NCBI GenBank assembly: GCA_005805375.1
Contig: SYMT01000045.1
Span: forward strand, 1-38,581
Direction of reading: 5' to 3'
DNA length: 38,581 nucleotides
DNA from: Actinomycetota bacterium
GTDB lineage: Bacteria > Armatimonadota > SYMT01
The position numbers and the translations under genes are program-made. Under the pieces are notes generated by a model. The model was not told where the DNA came from and did not search any database. It was given only the letters and a program-made list of their open reading frames with translations. Positions 3 to 13,679 of this stretch are shown piece by piece; the first letter of the stretch is position 1, and each line of letters opens with the position of its first letter.

Positions 3-437
3 GGGCAGCAGCGCTACGGGAAGGTGGTGCGCACCTTCGTCGGTGAAGTCGAAAAGATCCTGGAGGTGGAGACGGCAGACGGCGCCCGCGTGAAGGCGAC
101 GGAAGGGCACCCGTTCTTCGTGGAGGGCCGCGGCTTCGTCGCGGCGCGGAAACTGGCGCGCGGGGACCTGCTGCGCCGCGTGGACGGACGGCGCGTGGCG
201 GTGGTGGGCCTGGGGTGGGAGGAGACGCGCACCCGGGTCTACAACTTTGAGGTGGAGGGGACGCACACCTACTACGCCAGAGCGGGGCACGTTCAGCGCG
301 GCGATCCCGCTGTCCAACCCGCGGTCTCCCGCAGGATCGCCTCCACCACCGGTCCGTCCGCCGGCTGGCCGGTGATCGCCGCGATGCCGGCACGCGGATC
401 GGTCGCCAGTCGGCAGATCAGCGGGTCGTCCGGCTGA
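3..437 (+). pseudogene. Hint (hedgehog/intein-type) domain protein, 3' fragment, N-terminus outside window
   Basis: The frame is open from the window edge, so only the last 144 residues are visible. The first ~95 residues look like the C-terminal half of a Hint autoprocessing domain of the kind that precedes toxins in polymorphic toxin/RHS proteins. They contain ATEGHPFFVEGRGFVAARKL, then a RVYNFEVEGTHTYYARAGHV block, which in this family is normally followed by a Val-His-Asn cleavage site. That site is missing. From about base 290 the frame runs antisense through the 3' end of the convergent dehydrogenase, so the last ~48 residues are probably not native protein, and no toxin domain follows. 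I therefore call it truncated. A rearrangement or an assembly join at ~290 would explain it. The Hint identity is fairly sure; the pseudogene status is inference. Confidence 0.6.
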
Positions 438-3561: not shown

Positions 3562-4004
3562 CATCGGAGGTTCTGAGGTTGGTGGACGCTCAGGTTGCTC
3601 ATGGCGCGGAGCAAGCGAACCTGCCGGCGGCCTGCCAGGTGTTCTCGGAGCTTCGCTATAATGACCCACAGGTATCCGAGATCCTGAGAGGACGGAGGAT
3701 GGCGCTGCAATCGGCGTGGACGCGGGAAGGGTGGGCGGACGAAACGGCGCGGGTAATCGCCGAACGCGTAGCTGCCCCGAAGGCGGAAGGGCTCGCGGAA
3801 GGCAATGCTGAATCCGTGGTGCAGGTGCTGCGACGCCGGTTCACGGATGTGCCGCCGGAGTTGGAAGCGCGGGCGTGTAAGATTGGCAACGTGGCTTTGC
3901 TGAATACCCCGCTCAGCTACGCACTGAGCTGCCGCAGTTTGCAGGCCTTCGTACGGCTGCCGCAGCACTGCCGCGATCTTCTGCGGCGCCGCTACTCGCT
4001 GTGA
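3562..4004 (+). pseudogene. Rpn/PD-(D/E)XK-type nuclease family (DUF4351-like), C-terminal remnant
   Basis: From about base 3562 the frame encodes ~147 residues matching the C-terminal half of the abundant Rpn-like (recombination-promoting nuclease/putative transposase) proteins. It has the conserved helix EQANLPAACQVFSELRYNDP, a charged linker and a DUF4351-like tail (VVQVLRRRFTDVPPELEARA...LQAFVRLP). The N-terminal nuclease domain is missing. Bases 3578-3661 are ~83% identical to 10636-10719 in the second, complementary remnant downstream. It is either a 5'-truncated pseudogene or a domain fragment still expressed. It sits immediately upstream of the DUF5682-VWA-SWIM cassette. Confidence 0.6.
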
Positions 4005-4335
4005 AAGGGAAGGTCGCCGGTGCAGTTGGGGAGGTGGTCGGCGTTCGGCCAGAGGGGTTCCGTGGGGTTCCCGCAGAGGATCGGGGCCGAGGAACACTCA
4101 CTGCGGGCGCCGCACCGGGGACGACAGAGGGTTTACCAGGCATCGGCGCGAGATTGAGGGGGGCCGGGCACTCATCATCGGGGCGTGGTTGGGTCCGGCG
4201 TTCCCGGCGGTGGGTTGGGGTACCGGTGCGTGCCGAGATGCGTGCCTCCCGTCCCGTTCGTCCACTGCCTGACGGGAGACGAGCTTGAGGACCGCCACGA
4301 CCAGCCGGACTCCATACTTTCCGCCAGAAACTCGA
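4005..4335. other. intergenic stretch upstream of the DUF5682 gene
   Basis: These 331 bases hold no recognisable gene. A weak -10-like CATACT (4313-4318) lies 17 bases before the ATG at 4336, but there is no convincing -35 and no Shine-Dalgarno. In related clusters a MoxR-type ATPase gene is expected near here; none is present. Confidence 0.35.
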
Positions 4336-6624
4336 ATGCACGACCTGCCGGCAGGGCTCCTCGATCTGGGTGCGCCCGTTGTTTTTATGCCGGTGCGCCA
4401 TCACAGTCCGGGGTGCGCGCGGGTGACGCGGGGGTTGATTCGGCGCCTCCGGCCGGCGGCGGTCCTGATCGAGGGGCCGAGCGACTACAATTCTCGCTTC
4501 ACCGAATTGCACCTGGACCATCAGTTGCCCATTGCTATCTACAGTTACTTCCGCAGCGAGGATGGACGTCGCCGGGGAGCGTACTATCCCTTCTGCGTGT
4601 ACTCGCCGGAGTGGCAGGCCATCCGCACCGCGCATGAACTGGGCATCCCCACCTGGTTCATGGATGCCCCCTGGTACGCCCTCGACGGCGCTGAACTTCC
4701 GGCGCACCGGTATTCGGACGGCGACCTGCGGGCCAGTGACTATGTGCGGGCACTCTGCCGGGAACTGGGCGTAGAGGACTTCGACGCTGCCTGGGACCTC
4801 CTCTTTGAGTGCGACCCGGACCCACATTCGGCCGACTGGTTTCGGCGCTGCCACGAGCTCTGTTTCCGGACGCGCACCATTGACGCGATGCAACTCCCGG
4901 CTGATCTGCTGCGCGAGCGATTCATGGCGGCGGAGATCCGGCGGGCCCGGGAGAAATTCGACGGGCAGATTCTGGTGGTCTCGGGAGGCTTCCACTCCAG
5001 CGCGCTGCATCAGCGGCTGCAGGAGCCTCCCGACGACCCGGACCTGGGGGAGGCGCCGGAGGAGCACGGCATTGCTCTCACCCCCTACTCCTACGCGCGC
5101 CTCGACAGTCTCACCGGTTACGAGTCCGGGATGCCGAACCCGGGCTTCTATCACGAGGTGTGGCAGGATCACGAGCAGGGACGGAAGCAGACCTACCGAA
5201 GGCTACTGGCGCAGGCGGCTCGCGCCCTGCGGCGGAAGGGTCAGCTCGCCGGGACCGCCGATCTGATCGCAGTGGAAACGACCGCTCGGAGCCTGGCGGC
5301 GCTGCGGGGGCGCGCGGAGGTCTGGCGGCTGGATCTCGTGGATGGGATTCTGGGGGCGCTGGTCAAGGAAGAAGTAGGGCAGGGGGTGCGGCATCCGTTC
5401 CTTGAGGTCATCTACGAGGTATTTCGGGGAACCGAACGGGGCCGCGTCGCCGACGGCGCGGAACTCCCCCCGCTCGTGCGTGACATCCGGCGCACCCTGA
5501 CCGAGCACGAACTCCAGCCGGAGCAGGCGCCGCGCGCGGTGGTTTTGGAACTGACAGAGCATTCCGCCCGCGCGAAGAGCCGCATTCTGCACTGCCTGCT
5601 CGGGCTCGGCATCGCCGGGTTCGAGCGCACCGGGGGCACCGACTTTGCTGTGCGCGATGACCTGGTACAGCCGCATGAGTCGTGGCGCGTGCAGTGGGCT
5701 CCCGAGTTCGACGCGCACTGCATTGAGGCGGCACTCTACGGTCCCACGCTGGGAGAAGCCGCCGCTGCCCGGTTGCTGGAGCGGGTGGAGCAACTGGAAC
5801 GAGATGCGGCAGGGGCGGCATTGCTGCTGGTTGCGGCGGCGCAGATGGGACTGGACGACCTGGCGCCGGAATTGCTGACAGCGGTGACGGCGCGCCTGCG
5901 GGAGGACGCCGCCTTCGAGAGCGTTGCGGGGGCGATCGGCCACCTCCTCTACCTCTACCGCTACGACGAAACTCTCGGTACTCTGCGCGGCCAAAAGCTG
6001 GGAACGGTGCTGCGGGAAGCCTGGACGCGCGGGCTCTGGCTGCTCGACATGGCGGGGGATACGGGAGACGCTCGGGCGCAGGGGGTGCGGATCCTCGTGG
6101 ACTCGCTGGACCGGGCGGGCGCCGATCTGGACCTGAACCGTGAGGATCTGGTGACGGTTCTGCGCCGGGTCAGCACGGACGTAGAGCGGGCCCCGGCGCT
6201 CCGGGGTGTGGCCGCCGGGGCGCTTTGGACCCTGGGCGAGACCGATGTTCCGGCGCTGGTAGAGGGCCTGCGCGGACTGCCCGAACCTACCCATCTGGGC
6301 GACTACCTGGCGGGCTTATTCAGCATCGCGCGCGAGGCCGCCCAACGTTACCCGGCACTGCTCCTGGCTCTGAACAAGCACCTGATGGAGTTTGATGAAG
6401 ATGCGTTTCTCGAAGCGCTCCCCGCGCTTCGTCTCGCTTTCTCGTACTTCGCACCCCGTGAAAAGCACCACCTCGCGGGAACCCTCTTCCGGACCCTCGG
6501 ATACGACGCCGCGGCTTCCCTGCCGCCGCTTTCCGTCACTGCCGACGTTGCCGCCCGCGCGATGCACCTCGAAAATCGGGTGTTTCGCCTGATCGAGCGT
6601 TTCGGCCTTGGGGCGCCACCATGA
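4336..6624 (+). CDS. DUF5682 family protein, first gene of a DUF5682-VWA-SWIM cassette
   Basis: This cytoplasmic protein of 762 residues resembles the DUF5682 family. Near the N-terminus is the family's hallmark: MPVRHHSPGCAR (residues 18-29, with His22/His23) followed by VLIEGPSDYN. A second conserved block, ILVVSGGFHSSAL, lies near residue 215. The spaced His and acidic residues recall the EreA/ChaN/TraB-like hydrolase superfamily, so it may be a metal-dependent peptidase or esterase; that is inference. The rest is helical, alanine/leucine-rich and repeat-like. The family is usually encoded with VWA, SWIM and MoxR AAA+ genes. Its stop overlaps the VWA start (ATGA), so translation is coupled. 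I chose ATG 4336; an upstream in-frame TTG at 4285 would add 17 unconserved residues. Confidence 0.8.
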   Translation: MHDLPAGLLDLGAPVVFMPVRHHSPGCARVTRGLIRRLRPAAVLIEGPSDYNSRFTELHLDHQLPIAIYSYFRSEDGRRRGAYYPFCVYSPEWQAIRTAHELGIPTWFMDAPWYALDGAELPAHRYSDGDLRASDYVRALCRELGVEDFDAAWDLLFECDPDPHSADWFRRCHELCFRTRTIDAMQLPADLLRERFMAAEIRRAREKFDGQILVVSGGFHSSALHQRLQEPPDDPDLGEAPEEHGIALTPYSYARLDSLTGYESGMPNPGFYHEVWQDHEQGRKQTYRRLLAQAARALRRKGQLAGTADLIAVETTARSLAALRGRAEVWRLDLVDGILGALVKEEVGQGVRHPFLEVIYEVFRGTERGRVADGAELPPLVRDIRRTLTEHELQPEQAPRAVVLELTEHSARAKSRILHCLLGLGIAGFERTGGTDFAVRDDLVQPHESWRVQWAPEFDAHCIEAALYGPTLGEAAAARLLERVEQLERDAAGAALLLVAAAQMGLDDLAPELLTAVTARLREDAAFESVAGAIGHLLYLYRYDETLGTLRGQKLGTVLREAWTRGLWLLDMAGDTGDARAQGVRILVDSLDRAGADLDLNREDLVTVLRRVSTDVERAPALRGVAAGALWTLGETDVPALVEGLRGLPEPTHLGDYLAGLFSIAREAAQRYPALLLALNKHLMEFDEDAFLEALPALRLAFSYFAPREKHHLAGTLFRTLGYDAAASLPPLSVTADVAARAMHLENRVFRLIERFGLGAPP

Positions 6625-7751
6625 ACGAACAGGATCTCTGCCGATTGCGCTGGCGTCTGGTGCTCGGAGCGGGCGCCGAGGAGTGTTGTTCCACGATGCC
6701 GGGCGCCTGGTGTGAGCGGGACACGGTGCTTGGATTTCTGTACGACCGGGAGTATGGTCCGAAGCGCAACGTACGGACCGGCCCAAAAGGGCCGGGAACG
6801 CTCGATCCCTCGCAACTCACGGTGCCGGACTGGATCAACGCCGTCCACGAACTGTTCCCGCGCAAGACCGTGGAACGCATCGAGAAGGACGCCCTGGAAC
6901 GGTACGGCCTGCACGAGATGGTCACCAACCCGGAACTGCTCCGGCGCGCGGAGCCGAGTCAGACCCTGCTCCGGGCCGTTTTGCGCACGAAGCACCTGAT
7001 GAATCAGGAGGTGCTCACCCTCGCTCGGAATCTGGTCCGCCAGGTGGTGGACCAGCTCGTCGAGAAACTGGCCCGGCCGGTACACGCGCCGTTCCTGGGA
7101 GCCGTGGACCGACGGCGGCGTTCGTTCTTGAAAGCCGCAAAGAACTTCGACGCGCCGACGACCGTGCGGCGCAACCTGCGCCACTATGACCGCGAAACCA
7201 GCCGCCTCTACATCCACACCCCCTACTTCTCCTCCCGCGTGCGCAGTCAGGTGGATCGCTGGCAGCTCATCCTACTCGTGGATGAGTCCGGCAGCATGCT
7301 CAACAGCATCATTCACTCTGCTGTCACCGCATCCGTCTTTTGGGGAATTCCCTCGCTGCGCACACACCTGGTACTCTTCGACACAGAGATTGTGGATGTG
7401 ACCGAGCATTGCACCGACCCCGTGGAAACGCTGATGAAGGTGCAACTGGGAGGCGGGACGGATATCGGAAACGCACTCTCGTATGGGGCCACGCTGGTGG
7501 AGAACCCGCGGCGCACGATCGTGGTGCTGATCACCGATTTCTTCGAGGGGGCGCCCCAGCACCGCCTGCTCAGTGTGGCGAAGGAGATGCTGGCGAGCGG
7601 TGTCAACCTGCTCGGCCTTGCCGCACTGGACGAGGAGGCCTATCCGGCCTACGACTGCGATCTTGCCCAACGCCTGGTAGGACTGGGCGCCCACGTGGCC
7701 GCGATGACGCCCGGCGAACTGGCGGAGTGGGTCGCCGAAAAGGTGCGCTGA
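6621..7751 (+). CDS. VWA (von Willebrand factor A) domain protein of the DUF5682 cassette
   Basis: This 376-residue protein has an N-terminal helical region (~1-205) and a C-terminal VWA domain with a complete MIDAS metal site: DESGS at 221-225, Thr280 in GGGTDIG and Asp306 in LITDFFEG. VWA proteins of this type normally partner a MoxR AAA+ ATPase, much as the magnesium-chelatase D subunit works with subunit I, and act as a metal-dependent adaptor. There is no signal peptide or membrane segment, so it is cytoplasmic. The start ATG overlaps the DUF5682 stop, and the next gene starts one base after its stop. The three genes therefore form a tight operon. The ATPase partner is not in the window. 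Confidence 0.88.
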   Translation: MNEQDLCRLRWRLVLGAGAEECCSTMPGAWCERDTVLGFLYDREYGPKRNVRTGPKGPGTLDPSQLTVPDWINAVHELFPRKTVERIEKDALERYGLHEMVTNPELLRRAEPSQTLLRAVLRTKHLMNQEVLTLARNLVRQVVDQLVEKLARPVHAPFLGAVDRRRRSFLKAAKNFDAPTTVRRNLRHYDRETSRLYIHTPYFSSRVRSQVDRWQLILLVDESGSMLNSIIHSAVTASVFWGIPSLRTHLVLFDTEIVDVTEHCTDPVETLMKVQLGGGTDIGNALSYGATLVENPRRTIVVLITDFFEGAPQHRLLSVAKEMLASGVNLLGLAALDEEAYPAYDCDLAQRLVGLGAHVAAMTPGELAEWVAEKVR

Positions 7752-7752
7752 C

Positions 7753-10026
7753 ATGCCTCGCGCCGACCTGCTCGCGCTCGACGCCGAAAGCCTGGCGGTC
7801 CTGGCCAATCGAGGACTGGTCCGCCGGGCGCTCTCCGAACTGACCAGTAGTCAGTACACCTGCGAACTCGCTGATACGGCCGGCACAGTCACGGTGCGCT
7901 GGTCCGACCCGGTCGAATGCGTATTCCCCGCCGGAAAGACGATCCGCGAGGCCCGCTGCAGTTGCCCGGCCACGGCTCTCTGCCGGCACATTCTGCGCTC
8001 CGTTTTCGCGTACCAACGCACTGCGGTGGACGGTAGAACAGCGAGTGGCGAACGGCAAGCGGCGAACGGTGACGAACCGCCCGCACCGAGCCGCGCGGGT
8101 GAGCAAGCGCCCCCCCCTCAGACGGACCCCTCGCTGCGGCCCTTCGTACAGGAGCAAGCGGACCGTCTCGTACCCGCCCCCCTGCCGCGGCCCTCGGTGC
8201 GAGAGCAAGAGAGCCACCCAACGGATCGGGAGCACGTGAACGGCAACCGGGCTACATCGCCGGCTGCTCCGCTCCCGGGTTCTCCGGCAGCGGAGCAGCC
8301 GGGTGAAGTCCAGCCCTGGGACCCGGGAACAATCCCCGATGCAGAGATTGCGAAAGCCTATCGTTCCACGGTGCTCGCACGAATCCGAAGTACCTACGAG
8401 CAGGGACACGTCCTCGAACTCGCCCGCACACAGCGACCCACCGCGCGCATCCGCACGTTGTCCTGCACCGTGCGCTTTCTCGTGCCGGGGGACTTGCGTT
8501 ACACCCGGTGTGACTGTGCCGAACGAGCGCCGTGTAGTCATGTCCCACTCGCAATCTGGGCATTCCGGGCCCTGCCCGACGACCAGCCCGGAGGGCTCAT
8601 CTCGACGCGGCGCGACCCGCTTCCCGTGCCGGAGCCGGTGCTGGACGCGCTGGAAACGGCGCTGACGGAATGGGCGATCGTCGGCGTGTCAAACACGCCC
8701 TCGATACTCACCGATCGCCTGCGCCGCCTGGAAGAAGAAGCCCGGAACGAGGGGCTCGTGTGGCCGGCCGAGATCGTCGCCGACTTGCTGGTCCAGCATC
8801 GCGCCTATGCGGACCGGAATGCGCAGTTCCACCCTCCGCGCATTCCGGAACTGGCGGGGGAGCTTGCGGTCAGGATCGCCGCCATTCGGGCCAACACCGG
8901 CGGGGCGCCGCCCCTGTTCGTGCGGGGCTCCAGTGCCGATCGCACGACCGAGGTTGGAGCGGCCCGGCTGGTGGGAATCGGCTGCGGCGCAACTCTGCGC
9001 CGCGGGCAGGTGGAGGTCACCGCGTGCATGCAGGACATCAGCACCGGCTCCGTCATTGCACTCTCCCGAGCGTTCGCGGACCCGCCGGCCGACACAGGAC
9101 AGGATCCCGAAGATCTCTGGCGGCTGGCCGGGCGGCCGGTGCTCAACGGGTTTTCCCTGTCTGCCCTCGGCGCCGGCCAGATGCTCACCCGAGGAGGGAA
9201 ACGCACCGCTGCCGGCGTGTTTCTGCCTCCCCGCACCCTGGCATCCGTGTCGTGCAGCCCACAGGCCTATCGCTGGGAAGCACTGCATGGCCCGTTGCTG
9301 GTCGAGGACCTCGCCGAGCTAGAGGCGCGACTGGCGGGACAGCTTCCGAGTTGCCTCTCTCCCCGCCGGATCACGGAAAACCTGGTGGTGTGCCCGGTGG
9401 CCGGAGTGCGGCAGGCCGGCTTCTCTGCACCCCAGCAGGTGGTGTACGCAGTGATCGTGGATACCCGGGGGAACGTGGGCCACCTGTTGCATCCCTACAC
9501 GACCCGCGGTCGGGCCGGCGCCGAAGCGATGCTTCAGCGGCTAACAGCCGACGGAGAGGCGCTCCGCTTCGTTGCGGCCCGCGTACAGCGTGCGGTTGCC
9601 GGAGTACGCCTGGCCCCTGTGGGACTGGTGTTCGAGGAAGGAAGCACGCGCACTCTCGTGCAGCCGTGGGTAGAACGCCCGACTGCCGCTGCCGAGGTTT
9701 CCGACCCTGCAGTGGCACCCGGTGGGAGCAGCGCAGCGCGTGATCCGCTCGCCGAGTTCCTCTCCGAACTCGGTGACTTACTGGGTGAGCAGTGGCTCTT
9801 GGGGTTGGAACGCCGCGATGAACGGTTGGTGCACAACTGGCGAGCCCTGCTGGACCGGGGCGGGGCGCTGGGCTTCCACCGGCTGCTCGCCCCAATCCGG
9901 GTGTTTTGCAGCCTTCTGGAAGCGCGCCGCCACATCGTCCAATGGCAACCAATGCCGGCGGCACGAGCGTTGGTGGAACTTTCTCTGGTGGTCCGCGCCG
10001 CGGCGGAGGAGGTGGCCCTGGTCTGA
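7753..10026 (+). CDS. double SWIM zinc-finger protein of the DUF5682 cassette
   Basis: This 757-residue protein carries two SWIM-type zinc fingers with the same CxCx5CxH spacing: C69/C71/C77/H79 (CSCPATALCRH) and C253/C255/C261/H263 (CDCAERAPCSH). A Pro/Glu/Ala-rich linker (~90-195) separates them and looks disordered. The long C-terminal part (~280-757) is not recognised. It contains hydrophobic strands and a conserved-looking helical end. SWIM domains usually mediate contact with DNA or protein. The gene starts one base after the VWA stop, which supports a common complex or pathway with VWA and DUF5682. Two fingers in one cassette protein could indicate fusion of two SWIM units. Confidence 0.8.
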   Translation: MPRADLLALDAESLAVLANRGLVRRALSELTSSQYTCELADTAGTVTVRWSDPVECVFPAGKTIREARCSCPATALCRHILRSVFAYQRTAVDGRTASGERQAANGDEPPAPSRAGEQAPPPQTDPSLRPFVQEQADRLVPAPLPRPSVREQESHPTDREHVNGNRATSPAAPLPGSPAAEQPGEVQPWDPGTIPDAEIAKAYRSTVLARIRSTYEQGHVLELARTQRPTARIRTLSCTVRFLVPGDLRYTRCDCAERAPCSHVPLAIWAFRALPDDQPGGLISTRRDPLPVPEPVLDALETALTEWAIVGVSNTPSILTDRLRRLEEEARNEGLVWPAEIVADLLVQHRAYADRNAQFHPPRIPELAGELAVRIAAIRANTGGAPPLFVRGSSADRTTEVGAARLVGIGCGATLRRGQVEVTACMQDISTGSVIALSRAFADPPADTGQDPEDLWRLAGRPVLNGFSLSALGAGQMLTRGGKRTAAGVFLPPRTLASVSCSPQAYRWEALHGPLLVEDLAELEARLAGQLPSCLSPRRITENLVVCPVAGVRQAGFSAPQQVVYAVIVDTRGNVGHLLHPYTTRGRAGAEAMLQRLTADGEALRFVAARVQRAVAGVRLAPVGLVFEEGSTRTLVQPWVERPTAAAEVSDPAVAPGGSSAARDPLAEFLSELGDLLGEQWLLGLERRDERLVHNWRALLDRGGALGFHRLLAPIRVFCSLLEARRHIVQWQPMPAARALVELSLVVRAAAEEVALV

Positions 10027-10123
10027 AAGGGTGCGGCCGCGCACTGCGGCGCCATGAGGGCGCCGAGAATTGTTCCGGGAGCGGTGACAACCGAGATTCA
10101 CAGTGCGGAAGGAGGAGGCAGGC

Positions 10124-10825
10124 ATGGGTGAGTTTGACGGCGGGTCCGCCTGGTTGGTGCAGCACTTCGGCCGGGCGTTGCTCGGCCTGGCCGGAGTCAC
10201 CCTCTCGGGCGGGGTGACGGCCCTCGCCCCCAAAATTGGTGTTGCCACCCGCGTGCCCGACGGCCTGCTGCAGGCCGACGCGACCGATCCCGCTGCGGTG
10301 CCGGAACTCTACCTGTTGGAAATCGCCACGCGGGGTGAGACCCGGTTGCCGCAGCAGATGCACGACGATCTGGCGCTGTCCCGGCTGGCCTTGAAGCGCG
10401 TGCCCAACGGGGTCGCCTTCGTCCTCTGGCCGCATGCCGCGGCGGGCCTGGTCGAGCGGCACCGGGAAGAGAGTTCGCGCGGGTGGTCTTCTGTGGAGAC
10501 TCGGTGGAAGGTGATCCGGTGCTACGAACTGGATGCCGCCGCAGTCCTGGTGCGTGGAGAACCAGGGTTGGCGCCGATCGCCCTGGTGGCGCAGACAACC
10601 GAGCCGGCACCCCGGCTGGCGGAGCAGGTGCGGCAGTTGGTGGACGTCCAGGTGCCAGATGGGGTGGAGCAAGCGAACCTGCTGGCGGTGTGTCAGGTGT
10701 TTGCGGAGCTTCGCTATAAGGTTGCTGCCGCACTGACCTCATCGTCGCGTCCGGCGTCCGTGCCCAGGCGAGATAGCAGTCTCCGCGCGGTTGGTGCCGC
10801 ATTGGCCCGACTTCCGCCCCGGTAG
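10124..10825 (+). pseudogene. Rpn/PD-(D/E)XK-type nuclease family protein, C-terminally truncated
   Basis: The 233-residue frame starts at ATG 10124 after a strong GGAGGAGG Shine-Dalgarno. It follows the N-terminal half of Rpn-like nuclease/transposase proteins: MGEFDGGSAWLVQHFG..., VPDGLLQAD (candidate catalytic Asp), then LYLLEIATRGETRLPQQMHDD, in which the family has its E-x-(A/Q/K) active-site strand. It continues through VEQANLLAVCQVFAELRY and then loses similarity: the last ~30 residues (KVAAALTSSSRPASVPRR...) replace the expected C-terminal domain. The nuclease core may still be made. It is the complementary half to the remnant at 3562-4004, though the shared 84-base segment is only ~83% identical, so the two come from different family copies. 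Confidence 0.6.
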
Positions 10826-10870
10826 TGCTGATTGCCGCAGCGACGGTCGCCGACGCACATCGGGAAGTGG

Positions 10871-12754
10871 TCAGCGTTCGCTGTCCACCCGGAGAGGGCG
10901 GAACCCGTTCACGTTGAAGCGGCTGTCAGGAGTGCCGTAGCCGCGCGCAGTGATGCGCAGGTTGGCGGGGTTGCCCATCCACGACGAACCACGCAACACT
11001 CGAGAACTGCGATTCGGATCGTCGGGGCCCTGTGGATCTTGCGCGGGACTCTGCCGGTAGTAGCTGGAAATGTACCGATCAGCGCACCACTCCCAGATGT
11101 TTCCTGCCATGTCCAATACCCCGCACCAACTGGCGCCCCGGGGCCTGGATCCCACTGGTGCAGGCTTTTCCGCACGATACACGGCAAGTTCGGGGGTGAT
11201 CACCTGTGAGCCCCAGGGATGGCGGCGACTTTCCGGTCCACGCGCCGCGTACTCCCACTCCGCCTCGGTCGGCAAACGGTAGAGAACCTGCCCGCCGCTT
11301 TTCCGGGACGCCAGTGTCAGCCAGGCACAATAGAGGACGGCATCCCACCAGTTGACTCCGACAACCGGCTGGTCCGGGCTGTTGAAACGTTCGTCCTGCC
11401 AGAATTGCGGTTCGGCCACCGCCGGATTCCGGGCCAGCAGGTCCGCCAGGTGGGGATACTGCTGCGCTTCGGCAGCCAGGTCCGCCGGGAGGTTCCCGAG
11501 AAGGGGAGGAGCTTCACGTAGAAACTGTGCATAGCGGGCATTTGTGACGGGGTGCTGGTAGACCCAGAACCCGCTGGTGATCTCGACCGGATGGGATGGC
11601 TGCTCTGAAGCTTCGCCCCGATCGGCGCCCATCGAGAACGTCCCGGGCGGTACCCACAGCAATGGAGCCCCGTCCACGGAGTTCTCCACCACCTCGCCGG
11701 CGGCGCGCGTGGGAGCTGCCGCGGCGTCCCGGAGCACCTGAACGGTAAGGTGGAGGTCTCCTGTCTTACCGCCGTTCCGACCGGCCCCGCCTCCGCCGGG
11801 GAAAAGGAGGCGCTGCCCGTGGGTCACCCCGGGAGAAACCGGTACGCGCGGCATCACGGCTCCTGGAAGCGCATCGAAGGTCCCGCCCGCCTGCGCTTGC
11901 GCCGGGGTCAGGCGCAGCTCCCCGTGCAGTTCGGCGCCGGGAGTGGGGCCGTACACCGCCCGGCCCGCCCGAGTCAATTCTGCGCGCATCTCTGCCGCGG
12001 TCTTGAAGCGTTTCTCCCGATCCCGGTCCAGGGCCTGCTGCACGACGGCAGCTACCGCCTCCGGTACCCCCGCCGGCAGGGGTGGGAGCGGGGCAGCGAG
12101 AATGCCGCCCATCAGCGCAGCCAGATCCGCTCCGACAAACGGTAACTTTCCCGCCAGCAATTCGTACAGGATCACCCCGGTGGCCCAGATATCCGTCTGG
12201 CGGCTGATCGTACCGGAGAACGCCTCCGGCGGCATGTAGGGCAACGTTCCTGCCCAATTGGACGTGTGGAAAGAGGTGGTGCCGAGCCGGGCGATCCCGA
12301 AATCCGACAAACGAGGGCTGCCTGCTTGAAGCAAAATATTGGCCGGCTTCAAATCCTGGTGGAGAATCTGGCGAGAGTGAAGGTGCTCGAGACCTTCCAG
12401 AATCCCTTCAACCAGGTCCACAGCCTCGGCCACAGGCAGCCGGCGCTCTGCCTGACTCCGCAGCCGGTCTTCGAGCGCGCCACCGTCCACGAACTCGCTT
12501 ACCAGGACGAACTCACCGTCGTACACGTTCGCATCAAGAACCGGAACGATGTTCGGATGACCGCTGGCCCGGACCCAAACACGGGCTTCTTCCAAAAACC
12601 GTTCGGCTCCCGCGGATCGGTCGAGCGCCACTTTGAGGGCAACCGGAATTGCGACCGGGCCCTCGCGCACTGCACGGAAGACGAGTCCGAACGCCCCGCG
12701 CCCGAGTTCTTGTTCCAGCCGATACGGCCCCACAGTTCCGCCAGATCGAAGCAT
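10871..12754 (-). CDS. Ser/Thr protein kinase fused to a DnaJ-C-terminal-like domain and an FGE-sulfatase (SUMF1) fold domain
   Basis: This 627-residue protein has three parts. A Hanks-type kinase (~9-265) has GRGAFG, Lys41 (VALK), HQD at 132-134 (non-RD), Asn139, DFG at 151-153 and PPEAF. Residues ~272-342 (ELRLTPAQAQAGGTFDALPG...VSPGVTHGQRLLFPGG...GDLHLTVQVL) look like the substrate-binding C-terminal domain of DnaJ/CbpA. Residues ~355-627 form a SUMF1/FGE-type domain (PPGTFSMGADRGEASEQPSHPVEI, RLPTEAEWEYAARG, MAGNIWEWC). The two copper-site cysteines of true FGE align with Gly and Asn, so it should not make formylglycine. No transmembrane segment is seen. ATG 12754 starts just before the kinase; the longer open frame upstream is unsupported. 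It is last in a three-gene operon. Confidence 0.85.
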   Translation of the reverse strand: MLRSGGTVGPYRLEQELGRGAFGLVFRAVREGPVAIPVALKVALDRSAGAERFLEEARVWVRASGHPNIVPVLDANVYDGEFVLVSEFVDGGALEDRLRSQAERRLPVAEAVDLVEGILEGLEHLHSRQILHQDLKPANILLQAGSPRLSDFGIARLGTTSFHTSNWAGTLPYMPPEAFSGTISRQTDIWATGVILYELLAGKLPFVGADLAALMGGILAAPLPPLPAGVPEAVAAVVQQALDRDREKRFKTAAEMRAELTRAGRAVYGPTPGAELHGELRLTPAQAQAGGTFDALPGAVMPRVPVSPGVTHGQRLLFPGGGGAGRNGGKTGDLHLTVQVLRDAAAAPTRAAGEVVENSVDGAPLLWVPPGTFSMGADRGEASEQPSHPVEITSGFWVYQHPVTNARYAQFLREAPPLLGNLPADLAAEAQQYPHLADLLARNPAVAEPQFWQDERFNSPDQPVVGVNWWDAVLYCAWLTLASRKSGGQVLYRLPTEAEWEYAARGPESRRHPWGSQVITPELAVYRAEKPAPVGSRPRGASWCGVLDMAGNIWEWCADRYISSYYRQSPAQDPQGPDDPNRSSRVLRGSSWMGNPANLRITARGYGTPDSRFNVNGFRPLRVDSER

Positions 12755-12815
12755 AATCGCGAGTGAGTTCACGAACGAGGCGGGAAGTTCCTGCACTACC
12801 CGGATTCGGGCAACG

Positions 12816-13679
12816 CTACGGATTCCACCGCAGCACCGACGCTTCCGCGGGCGTGACCAGGCGTATGGAACCGTCCGCAAAACCGACACAGGCAGCCCCA
12901 AGATGACGGAAATCCAGCTTTCCATCGGCTCCTTCGTAGAAGACGACGGTGGCGCCCGGTCGAAACATCTTTTGCTGCGAGGCGGCTTCGATCTTCGGAT
13001 TCAGCGTGTACGGAGTGCGGGTCTCCGGGCACACAAAATGGGCGGGGTCCTTCCGCACATACGGGAGCAGCCGGGACTGGTAGTTTTTCCGGCTGAAGGC
13101 GAAGCGATCCTCATGGTCATCCACGAAGAACCGCACCCCGACCAGAAGATTGCGCATGTTCAAACGGCACAGTTCCCGCCTGGCTGCCTGACGGGACGCC
13201 AGTACCGCATCCGGATCGGTGAGGGAGGCGAAAATGGGCGCCAGCATGCCCGTGGGCGATCCGAGGGACACAGGCGCTCCCGGCGGGCGGACTTTCCAGC
13301 CCTGAGGCCCCCGCACGAGTTCAACGCGATCTTCCAGCGACTGCCGCGGTGCTGTGGGGGGTGTCACCTCCACGATGACCTTGAGCGCAACCGTCGCACG
13401 TTCGCCGTATTCCTCGGCACGGACCTGCTCCACGTTCAGGGTCACACGGCCGGCGCGCTGCGACTTCAGATCCACTTCCAGGGTTGCCAGGGCAGGTGCT
13501 GGCCCGGCCGTGGTCAGGAACCCGGCGGCGCGTTTCAGGTCCAGGGCGTTGAGCGCCTCGATCAGGCTCCGGACGGCCGCTTCGGGAGTCGTTCCCCCCG
13601 GCGGCTCTCCGGTGGAGTGGGTCATTCCACCCTGTGCCAGGATCCAGAGGATGAGGATAACCGGAAGTATCGCTCTCAT
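12816..13679 (-). CDS. secreted protein with C-terminal H-X9-DG (DUF1559/pilin-like) motif
   Basis: This 287-residue protein starts with a signal peptide (MRAILPVILILWILAQGG). A ~110-residue segment resembling an NTF2-like or lipoprotein-type fold follows (TPEAAVRSLIEALNALDLKRAAGFL...). The C-terminal half is like the globular part of DUF1559/pilin-type proteins: CRLNMRNLLVGVRFFVDDHEDRF, then LLPYVRKDPAHFVCPE, then a perfect H-X9-DG motif (RHLGAACVGFADG). The type IV pilin N-terminal helix is absent; a cleavable signal replaces it, so it is probably a soluble or envelope-bound derivative. Its start overlaps the stop of the lyase gene (ATGA), so translation is coupled. The kinase gene follows 61 bases downstream. 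The role is unknown. Confidence 0.7.
   Translation of the reverse strand: MRAILPVILILWILAQGGMTHSTGEPPGGTTPEAAVRSLIEALNALDLKRAAGFLTTAGPAPALATLEVDLKSQRAGRVTLNVEQVRAEEYGERATVALKVIVEVTPPTAPRQSLEDRVELVRGPQGWKVRPPGAPVSLGSPTGMLAPIFASLTDPDAVLASRQAARRELCRLNMRNLLVGVRFFVDDHEDRFAFSRKNYQSRLLPYVRKDPAHFVCPETRTPYTLNPKIEAASQQKMFRPGATVVFYEGADGKLDFRHLGAACVGFADGSIRLVTPAEASVLRWNP

What the first reader, a model, noticed from the sequence alone, without database searches (positions are those of the whole stretch)
3562..10825. DUF5682-VWA-SWIM cassette without its MoxR ATPase, lying between two complementary Rpn-type nuclease remnants
Three coupled genes (DUF5682, a VWA protein with an intact MIDAS, and a double-SWIM protein) form a set that in other bacteria usually comes with a MoxR AAA+ ATPase and often DUF5691. 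Here both are absent. The cassette is bounded on the left by the C-terminal half and on the right by the N-terminal half of Rpn-like nucleases, as if inserted at or excised from such loci. The set belongs to the wider group of VWA-MoxR conflict or stress systems, but this composition is unusual. The VWA may use a distant MoxR, or the complex may work without one.
Basis: partly seen in the sequence, partly recalled or inferred. Interest (0 to 1): 0.72.

Follow-up and report, generated by a model that had tools for sequence, protein, structure and literature searches.

The report
Dispersed YehLMPQ operon; its ATPase elsewhere
The three-gene set is the back half of a widespread but almost unstudied bacterial system (known in E. 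coli as yehI-yehL-yehM-yehP-yehQ); its ATPase is not missing, it and the fifth gene sit at two other places in the same genome, so the set is an unusually scattered copy of a known system, not a system without an ATPase.

Summary
The three genes are real, intact and tightly coupled: DUF5682 (4336-6624), VWA_CoxE (6621-7751), double-SWIM (7753-10026). No MoxR or DUF5691 is in the window. They match E. coli YehM, YehP and YehQ. The ATPase is not lost: contig C643 of the same genome holds a lone YehL-type MoxR in the same tree clade as the window genes' relatives (63-76% identical to the clade's other YehLs; 46% to the genome's other MoxR). A WGR-DUF4132 gene on C564 is the matching YehI. The genome also has a separate, canonical DUF5691-MoxR-DUF5682-VWA set (C222/C625). 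In 77 of 80 loci from other genomes a YehL gene lies upstream of DUF5682; the three exceptions (two Fimbriiglobus, one Planctomycetaceae) each keep one YehL elsewhere. So this is a YehILMPQ system dispersed over three loci, and YehL evidently can act from a distance. DUF5691 belongs to a different layout, so its absence is normal. The flanking 'Rpn halves' are two separate decayed copies of a multi-copy gene, not the ends of an insertion. Function is inferred: an AAA+/VWA remodeller serving a possibly nucleic-acid-associated complex. Moderate interest.

The parts
4336..6624 (+). YehM-type DUF5682 protein (762 aa from ATG 4336; a TTG at 4285 is also possible)
   Evidence: Pfam PF18934 E=1e-118; best survey match of E. 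coli YehM, 287 bits; family-invariant residues incl. R21 H22 H23 P25 E46 G217 H220; AF2 model pLDDT 88
6621..7751 (+). YehP-type VWA_CoxE protein with intact MIDAS
   Evidence: PF05762 E=2e-51; best survey match of YehP, 405 bits; DESGS/GGGTD/ITDF
7753..10026 (+). YehQ-type double-SWIM protein
   Evidence: Best survey match of YehQ, 97 bits; 33-45% identical to the SWIM proteins of the closest linked operons (L103, L106, L108, L110, L111, L112); AF2 model pLDDT 82
3569..4047 (+). 5'-truncated decayed copy of a multi-copy Rpn-like/DUF4351-like gene (not part of the system)
   Evidence: 79% DNA identity to intact copy G000:C130 (L077)
10118..10902 (+). Second copy of the same family with an internal deletion (homology 10118-10719 and 10776-10902; not part of the system)
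   Evidence: 86% and 74% DNA identity to L077; 20 matches of this family in the genome, many of them partial

Best explanation
The cassette is the M-P-Q part of a YehILMPQ system whose other two genes lie apart from it: YehL (MoxR AAA+ ATPase) on contig C643:2742-3902 and YehI (WGR-DUF4132) on contig C564:1819-5037 of the same genome. Shown: identity of the genes, intact motifs, matching clades of the parts, presence of both partners elsewhere in the assembly, and recurrence of unlinked YehL in other genomes. Inferred mechanism: YehL forms an ATP-driven ring (as the MoxR protein RavA does), YehP docks client or partner through its MIDAS, and together they remodel or activate a complex built from YehM (conserved alpha/beta head plus helical solenoid), YehQ (SWIM fingers plus a beta region faintly resembling tandem OB folds) and YehI (WGR). 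The WGR, SWIM and OB-like parts, and reports of DUF4132 and WGR genes in DNA-damage regulons, point to nucleic acids or DNA-damage stress. YehL would act in trans on M-P-Q.
For: E. coli yehI, yehL, yehM, yehP, yehQ are DUF4132, MoxR, DUF5682, VWA, SWIM in that order. Of all surveyed ORFs YehL matches the lone C643 ATPase best among those compared (392 bits vs 225 for the genome's other MoxR), and YehM, YehP and YehQ match the window genes best. Trees: C643 YehL (SH-aLRT 89), window VWA (99) and window DUF5682 (99) fall in the same clade of loci L103-L113, while the genome's canonical set (C222/C625) falls in another. C643 YehL is 63-76% identical to clade YehLs, 46% to C222 MoxR; scores against window DUF5682 follow those against C643 YehL (rho 0.75) and run against C222 MoxR (rho -0.56) (rows are not phylogenetically independent). 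C564 DUF4132 matches the clade's YehI best (571-807 bits; next 411). Copy numbers agree: 2 DUF5682 and 2 YehL-type MoxR here. Unlinked YehL recurs in G291, G292, G293. YehL Walker A/B, sensor 1 and Arg-finger motifs are intact.
Against: The assembly is a draft MAG in 727 contigs, 80% complete, so C643 and C564 are tied to it by binning. GC and 4-mer make-up fit but do not discriminate well. Best supporting sign for C643: its PDZ-protease neighbour has its closest relatives in the genome of the same family, a paralogue in this genome, and a genome of the same order; C564 was not tested in that way. No expression, binding or ATPase data. Clade support for YehL is 89, not over 95. The OB-like match is weak (best E about 1e-3, low TM-score); DUF5682 has no fold match under 1e-3.
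Confidence: 0.78

Rival explanations
1. The set borrows the MoxR of the genome's other, canonical set (C222) in trans, and the C643 ATPase serves something else.
For: C222 MoxR is present, next to DUF5691 and DUF5682; both MoxRs are YehL-type.
Against: C222 MoxR belongs to the clade of its own partners and is 46% identical to C643 YehL; its similarity profile runs against that of window DUF5682. C643 YehL has no other partner cassette nearby.
Confidence: 0.08
2. The set works without any AAA+ ATPase, or is a dying remnant.
For: No MoxR within the 38.6 kb window; flanked by decayed genes.
Against: All three frames are open, coupled and keep family-invariant residues and MIDAS. All three other unlinked cases found also keep a YehL. 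In the phylum 34 of 35 DUF5682 genomes have a YehL-type MoxR; the exception, G168, is 69% complete with a contig-edge fragment.
Confidence: 0.06
3. C643 and C564 are contaminant contigs, so the organism truly lacks YehL for this set.
For: MAG, short contigs (4.9 and 5.8 kb), 1.5% estimated contamination.
Against: GC 65.6% vs 66.7%; C643's PDZ-protease is closest to that of the same family, then an own paralogue and the same order; DUF4058, its other neighbour, is a family with 20 matches in this genome. Two independent contigs would both have to carry matching-clade parts.
Confidence: 0.06
4. The cassette is a mobile unit inserted at or excised from an Rpn-type nuclease gene.
For: Pieces of one gene family on both sides; a 94-bp direct repeat at 81%.
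Against: The repeat is the shared part of two paralogous copies; the right copy continues past its deletion into the gene's 3' end. The order C-part, cassette, N-part is the wrong way round for an insertion. No Rpn piece by C643 YehL. No relative found in viral contigs.
Confidence: 0.03

Closest known systems
E. coli K-12 yehI-yehK-yehL-yehM-yehP-yehQ region (b2118-b2122; YehL subfamily of MoxR AAA+ ATPases, PMC3893208)
   Same: All five families (DUF4132, YehL MoxR, DUF5682, VWA, SWIM); same M-P-Q order; YehL, YehM, YehP and YehQ each match this genome's genes best among the phylum ORFs compared
   Different: Here the operon is in three pieces on three contigs; YehI here carries a WGR-like start, E. 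coli YehI shows only DUF4132; sequences of another clade (DUF5682 about 33-35% identical)
Linked operon of the same clade in Gemmataceae MAG JAIEMG010000066 (L103) and Leptolyngbyaceae JAAUTJ010000054 (L113)
   Same: Closest sequences: DUF5682 54%, VWA up to 72%, YehL 75-76%; order DUF4132-YehL-DUF5682-VWA-SWIM
   Different: All genes adjacent there; L103 has two DUF4132 genes and an extra HEAT-repeat gene between YehL and DUF5682
Layout A: SWIM-DUF5691-MoxR-DUF5682-VWA (e.g. Deinococcus taeanensis plasmid, L206; also C222/C625 of this genome)
   Same: Homologous MoxR, DUF5682 and VWA, plus a SWIM protein
   Different: Has DUF5691, a different SWIM protein placed first, no DUF4132 nearby; separate clade in all three trees
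MoxR-vWA ternary conflict systems (Kaur et al. 2020, PMC7159879)
   Same: MoxR/VWA pairing; YehL P-loop GEPGTAKS fits the GXXXTAKS form reported for the FtsH and beta-propeller classes; weak bpMoxR hit below cut-off
   Different: No VMAP, iSTAND, FtsH or beta-propeller part and no variable effector; that paper's main text does not mention SWIM, YehL or DUF5682

Membership tests
YehILMPQ (E. coli yeh) system | DUF5682 protein (YehM) | tested here: met
   E=1e-118; 287 bits to YehM
YehILMPQ (E. coli yeh) system | VWA_CoxE protein with MIDAS (YehP) directly after YehM | tested here: met
YehILMPQ (E. coli yeh) system | Double-SWIM protein (YehQ) directly after YehP | tested here: met
YehILMPQ (E. 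coli yeh) system | YehL-type MoxR ATPase present in the genome, same clade | tested here: met
   C643
YehILMPQ (E. coli yeh) system | YehL gene directly upstream of YehM | tested here: not met
   No MoxR in the window; C643 YehL is flanked by a PDZ protease and DUF4058. Linkage is usual (77/80) but not universal, so it is treated as a usual, not a defining, feature
YehILMPQ (E. coli yeh) system | DUF4132 protein (YehI) present in the genome | tested here: met
   On C564, matching clade, but not linked to M-P-Q
YehILMPQ (E. coli yeh) system | Physical complex and ATPase-dependent activity | not testable with these tools
   Needs biochemistry; not established for E. coli either in the papers found
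Layout A (DUF5691-type) set | DUF5691 gene next to MoxR | tested here: not met
   None in the window; the genome's DUF5691 found is in C222
MoxR-vWA ternary conflict system (PMC7159879) | Third component VMAP, iSTAND, FtsH or beta-propeller, and a variable effector | tested here: not met
   Pfam, NCBIfam and PADLOC scans of the cassette and the flanking fragments show none; the rest of the window was not scanned
Mobile cassette inserted in an Rpn gene | One gene split by the insert, halves contiguous without the insert | tested here: not met
   two separate copies, the right one internally deleted

The most novel reading that the evidence does not exclude
The Yeh system is an AAA+ remodeller whose ATPase and WGR-DUF4132 subunits have been freed from the M-P-Q operon more than once because they are regulated or used independently, for instance serving more than one client set; this genome keeps two paralogous sets and one lone ATPase.
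Probability: 0.15. Interest if true: 0.55.

Novelty: new variant of a known kind. Interest (0 to 1): 0.4.

Why it matters
DUF5682 and DUF5691 are named in no paper of the library searched, and YehL is one of only two MoxR proteins of E. coli K-12 (PMC3893208), with no role described in the passages read. The survey defines two layouts, shows that DUF4132 (YehI) is a near-constant neighbour of YehL in one of them, and shows that YehL can be separated from M-P-Q and still be kept. That makes the composition and division of labour testable in E. coli K-12, and removes the idea of an ATPase-free MoxR/VWA system at this site.

Tried and rejected
First genome-contig scan with the single window protein found nothing; the alignment query worked. 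PADLOC and NCBIfam gave no useful match. No relative in viral contigs; one unannotated phage-labelled scaffold has a VWA match, not pursued. Foldseek gave no match under 1e-3 for DUF5682 (mostly helical-repeat hits) and weak OB-fold hits for SWIM; no function is claimed from them. No solved structure has sequence similarity to DUF5682 or the VWA; YehL matches only midasin. Considered and dropped: the ATPase hiding in the window in another frame; the two Rpn pieces as one split gene.
Full report
What is in the window. Three genes on the + strand are coupled: DUF5682 (ATG 4336 to 6624), VWA_CoxE (6621-7751, overlapping by 4 nt) and a double-SWIM protein (7753-10026, 1-nt gap). Pfam supports DUF5682 (E=1e-118) and VWA_CoxE (E=2e-51); SWIM scores 18.8 against a cut-off of 19.6. 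The SWIM protein nevertheless aligns with E. coli YehQ (E=8e-22) and keeps both CxC..CxH motifs. MIDAS motifs are intact. No MoxR and no DUF5691 occurs among the window's ORFs.

What family it is. E. coli K-12 has yehI (DUF4132), yehK, yehL (MoxR), yehM, yehP (VWA), yehQ (SWIM) in a row. Among the ORFs of this genome and its phylum that were compared, YehM, YehP and YehQ match the window genes best (287, 405, 97 bits), and YehL matches best a MoxR gene that lies alone on contig C643 of the window's own genome (392 bits, against 225 for the genome's other YehL-type MoxR).

Where the ATPase is. The genome (MAG, 7.46 Mb, 727 contigs, 80% complete) has two DUF5682 genes and two YehL-type MoxR genes. 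One set is canonical and lies on C222 (SWIM, DUF5691, MoxR, N-part of DUF5682) and C625 (C-part of DUF5682, VWA), one gene being cut by the contig ends. The second DUF5682 is the window's; the second MoxR is C643:2742-3902, between a PDZ/trypsin-type protease and a DUF4058 gene.

Do they belong together. In trees of MoxR, VWA and DUF5682 the C643 ATPase, the window VWA and the window DUF5682 sit in the same clade (L103-L113: Gemmataceae, Chloroflexaceae, Polyangiaceae, Verrucomicrobiota, Steroidobacter, Rhodopirellula, Leptolyngbyaceae; SH-aLRT 89, 99, 99), away from the genome's canonical set. C643 YehL is 63-76% identical to clade members and 46% to the C222 MoxR. Over about 100 loci, scores to window DUF5682 correlate with scores to C643 YehL (rho 0.75) and inversely with scores to C222 MoxR (rho -0.56); these rows are related, so the p-values are not to be taken at face value. 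C643 looks native: GC is close, its protease's nearest relatives lie in the genome of the same family, then a paralogue here and a genome of the same order, and DUF4058 is a multi-copy family here. None of this is proof of binning.

Survey. In the phylum 35 of 291 genomes have DUF5682 and 34 have a YehL-type MoxR at E<=1e-60; the one without is a 69%-complete genome with a contig-edge fragment. In the 33 others that have both, MoxR is next to DUF5682. Among 80 loci from other genomes 77 have YehL upstream of DUF5682, typically overlapping or within a few bases, though about a dozen of all surveyed loci show apparent gaps of 0.2-1.2 kb (gaps measured to the matched region, so some may be shorter). 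The three without are L107 and L109 (Fimbriiglobus MAGs) and L180 (Planctomycetaceae MAG). Each of those genomes has exactly one YehL elsewhere. In both Fimbriiglobus genomes it lies between an AroDE-like gene and pyruvate kinase (gene names read by eye from the translations; the AroDE side is cut short in G291), a stable unlinked state; L107 itself is on a 4.8-kb contig.

The fifth part. E. coli YehI (DUF4132) has homologues beside YehL in most window-type loci: 51 of 77 by a strict rule and about 14 more where the open frames overlap; in rhizobia it lies between M and P. It was not found near layout A loci. The window genome has two DUF4132 genes; the one on C564 (1819-5037, WGR-like start) matches the clade's YehI proteins at 571-807 bits against 411 for the next. 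Hence the system is in three pieces: I on C564, L on C643, M-P-Q in the window. One Fimbriiglobus genome also has an unlinked DUF4132 gene (G292:C457, 527 bits); the other showed none.

DUF5691. It belongs to layout A, SWIM-DUF5691-MoxR-DUF5682-VWA (also Deinococcus taeanensis). No DUF5691 match was listed at window-type loci, so its absence here is expected.

Flanks. A dispersed Rpn-like gene family with some 20 matches, many partial, occurs in the genome. The left piece matches intact copy C130 over 3569-4047 (79%), the right piece over 10118-10719 (86%) and again, after a deletion, over 10776-10902 (74%). They are two paralogous decayed copies, and the 94-bp direct repeat is their shared part. 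Pfam supports only DUF4351 below cut-off.

How it may work (inferred). MoxR ATPases act with VWA partners as chaperone-like remodellers; RavA is a hexamer and is stimulated by ViaA (PMC3893208). YehL keeps Walker A (GEPGTAKS), Walker B, sensor 1 and Arg-finger motifs. YehM has an alpha/beta head with invariant R21, H22, H23, P25, E46 and H220, then a helical solenoid, with no fold match under 1e-3. YehQ's beta region is faintly OB-like (best E 1.1e-3, low TM). YehI here has a WGR-like start. [quoted passage not shown] Together this leans to nucleic-acid or DNA-damage stress, but it is a lead, not a demonstration.

Verdict. It is a dispersed member of a widespread, largely uncharacterised five-gene system.

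Noticed in passing
L103-L182, typically just upstream of YehL: DUF4132 (WGR-DUF4132 in L163) genes are near-constant neighbours of YehL, often in two or more tandem copies; in Rhizobium, Shinella and Sinorhizobium they lie between yehM and yehP.
   Followed up: partly
L191 (G292:C33) and L192 (G291:C248): In two Fimbriiglobus MAGs a lone YehL lies next to pyruvate kinase (and an AroDE-like gene in G292), with DUF5682-VWA elsewhere (L109, L107); no SWIM gene was detected beside the VWA in L109.
   Followed up: partly
L103:9270-9980 and L108:8780-9946: Extra genes sit between YehL and DUF5682: a HEAT-repeat protein in L103 and a DNA_gyraseB-domain protein in L108, so the yehL-yehM junction tolerates inserts.
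   Followed up: no
L111:8417-22287: One Planctomycetota contig carries both layouts close together: YehL-DUF5682-VWA-SWIM followed by a second SWIM, a second MoxR and a second DUF5682.
   Followed up: no
window 10871-12925 (-): Ser/Thr protein kinase fused to an FGE-sulfatase (formylglycine-generating-like) domain, next to the cassette.
   Followed up: no
window 24-437 (+): Pretoxin HINT domain fragment near the contig edge (PT-HINT E=7e-10).
   Followed up: no
G000: The genome carries large dispersed paralogous families: some 20 matches each of an Rpn-like/DUF4351-like gene (many decayed) and of DUF4058.
   Followed up: partly
PHROGs holds families matching YehM, YehP and YehQ (phrog_30700, 33984, 31592, 29006) but no good YehL match, although no related viral contig was found; perhaps bacterial DNA in a phage-labelled record such as MT835988.
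   Followed up: partly
L074 (G193) 9196-10283 (-): The YehL gene of this relative reads in two overlapping frames (frameshift or assembly error).
   Followed up: no
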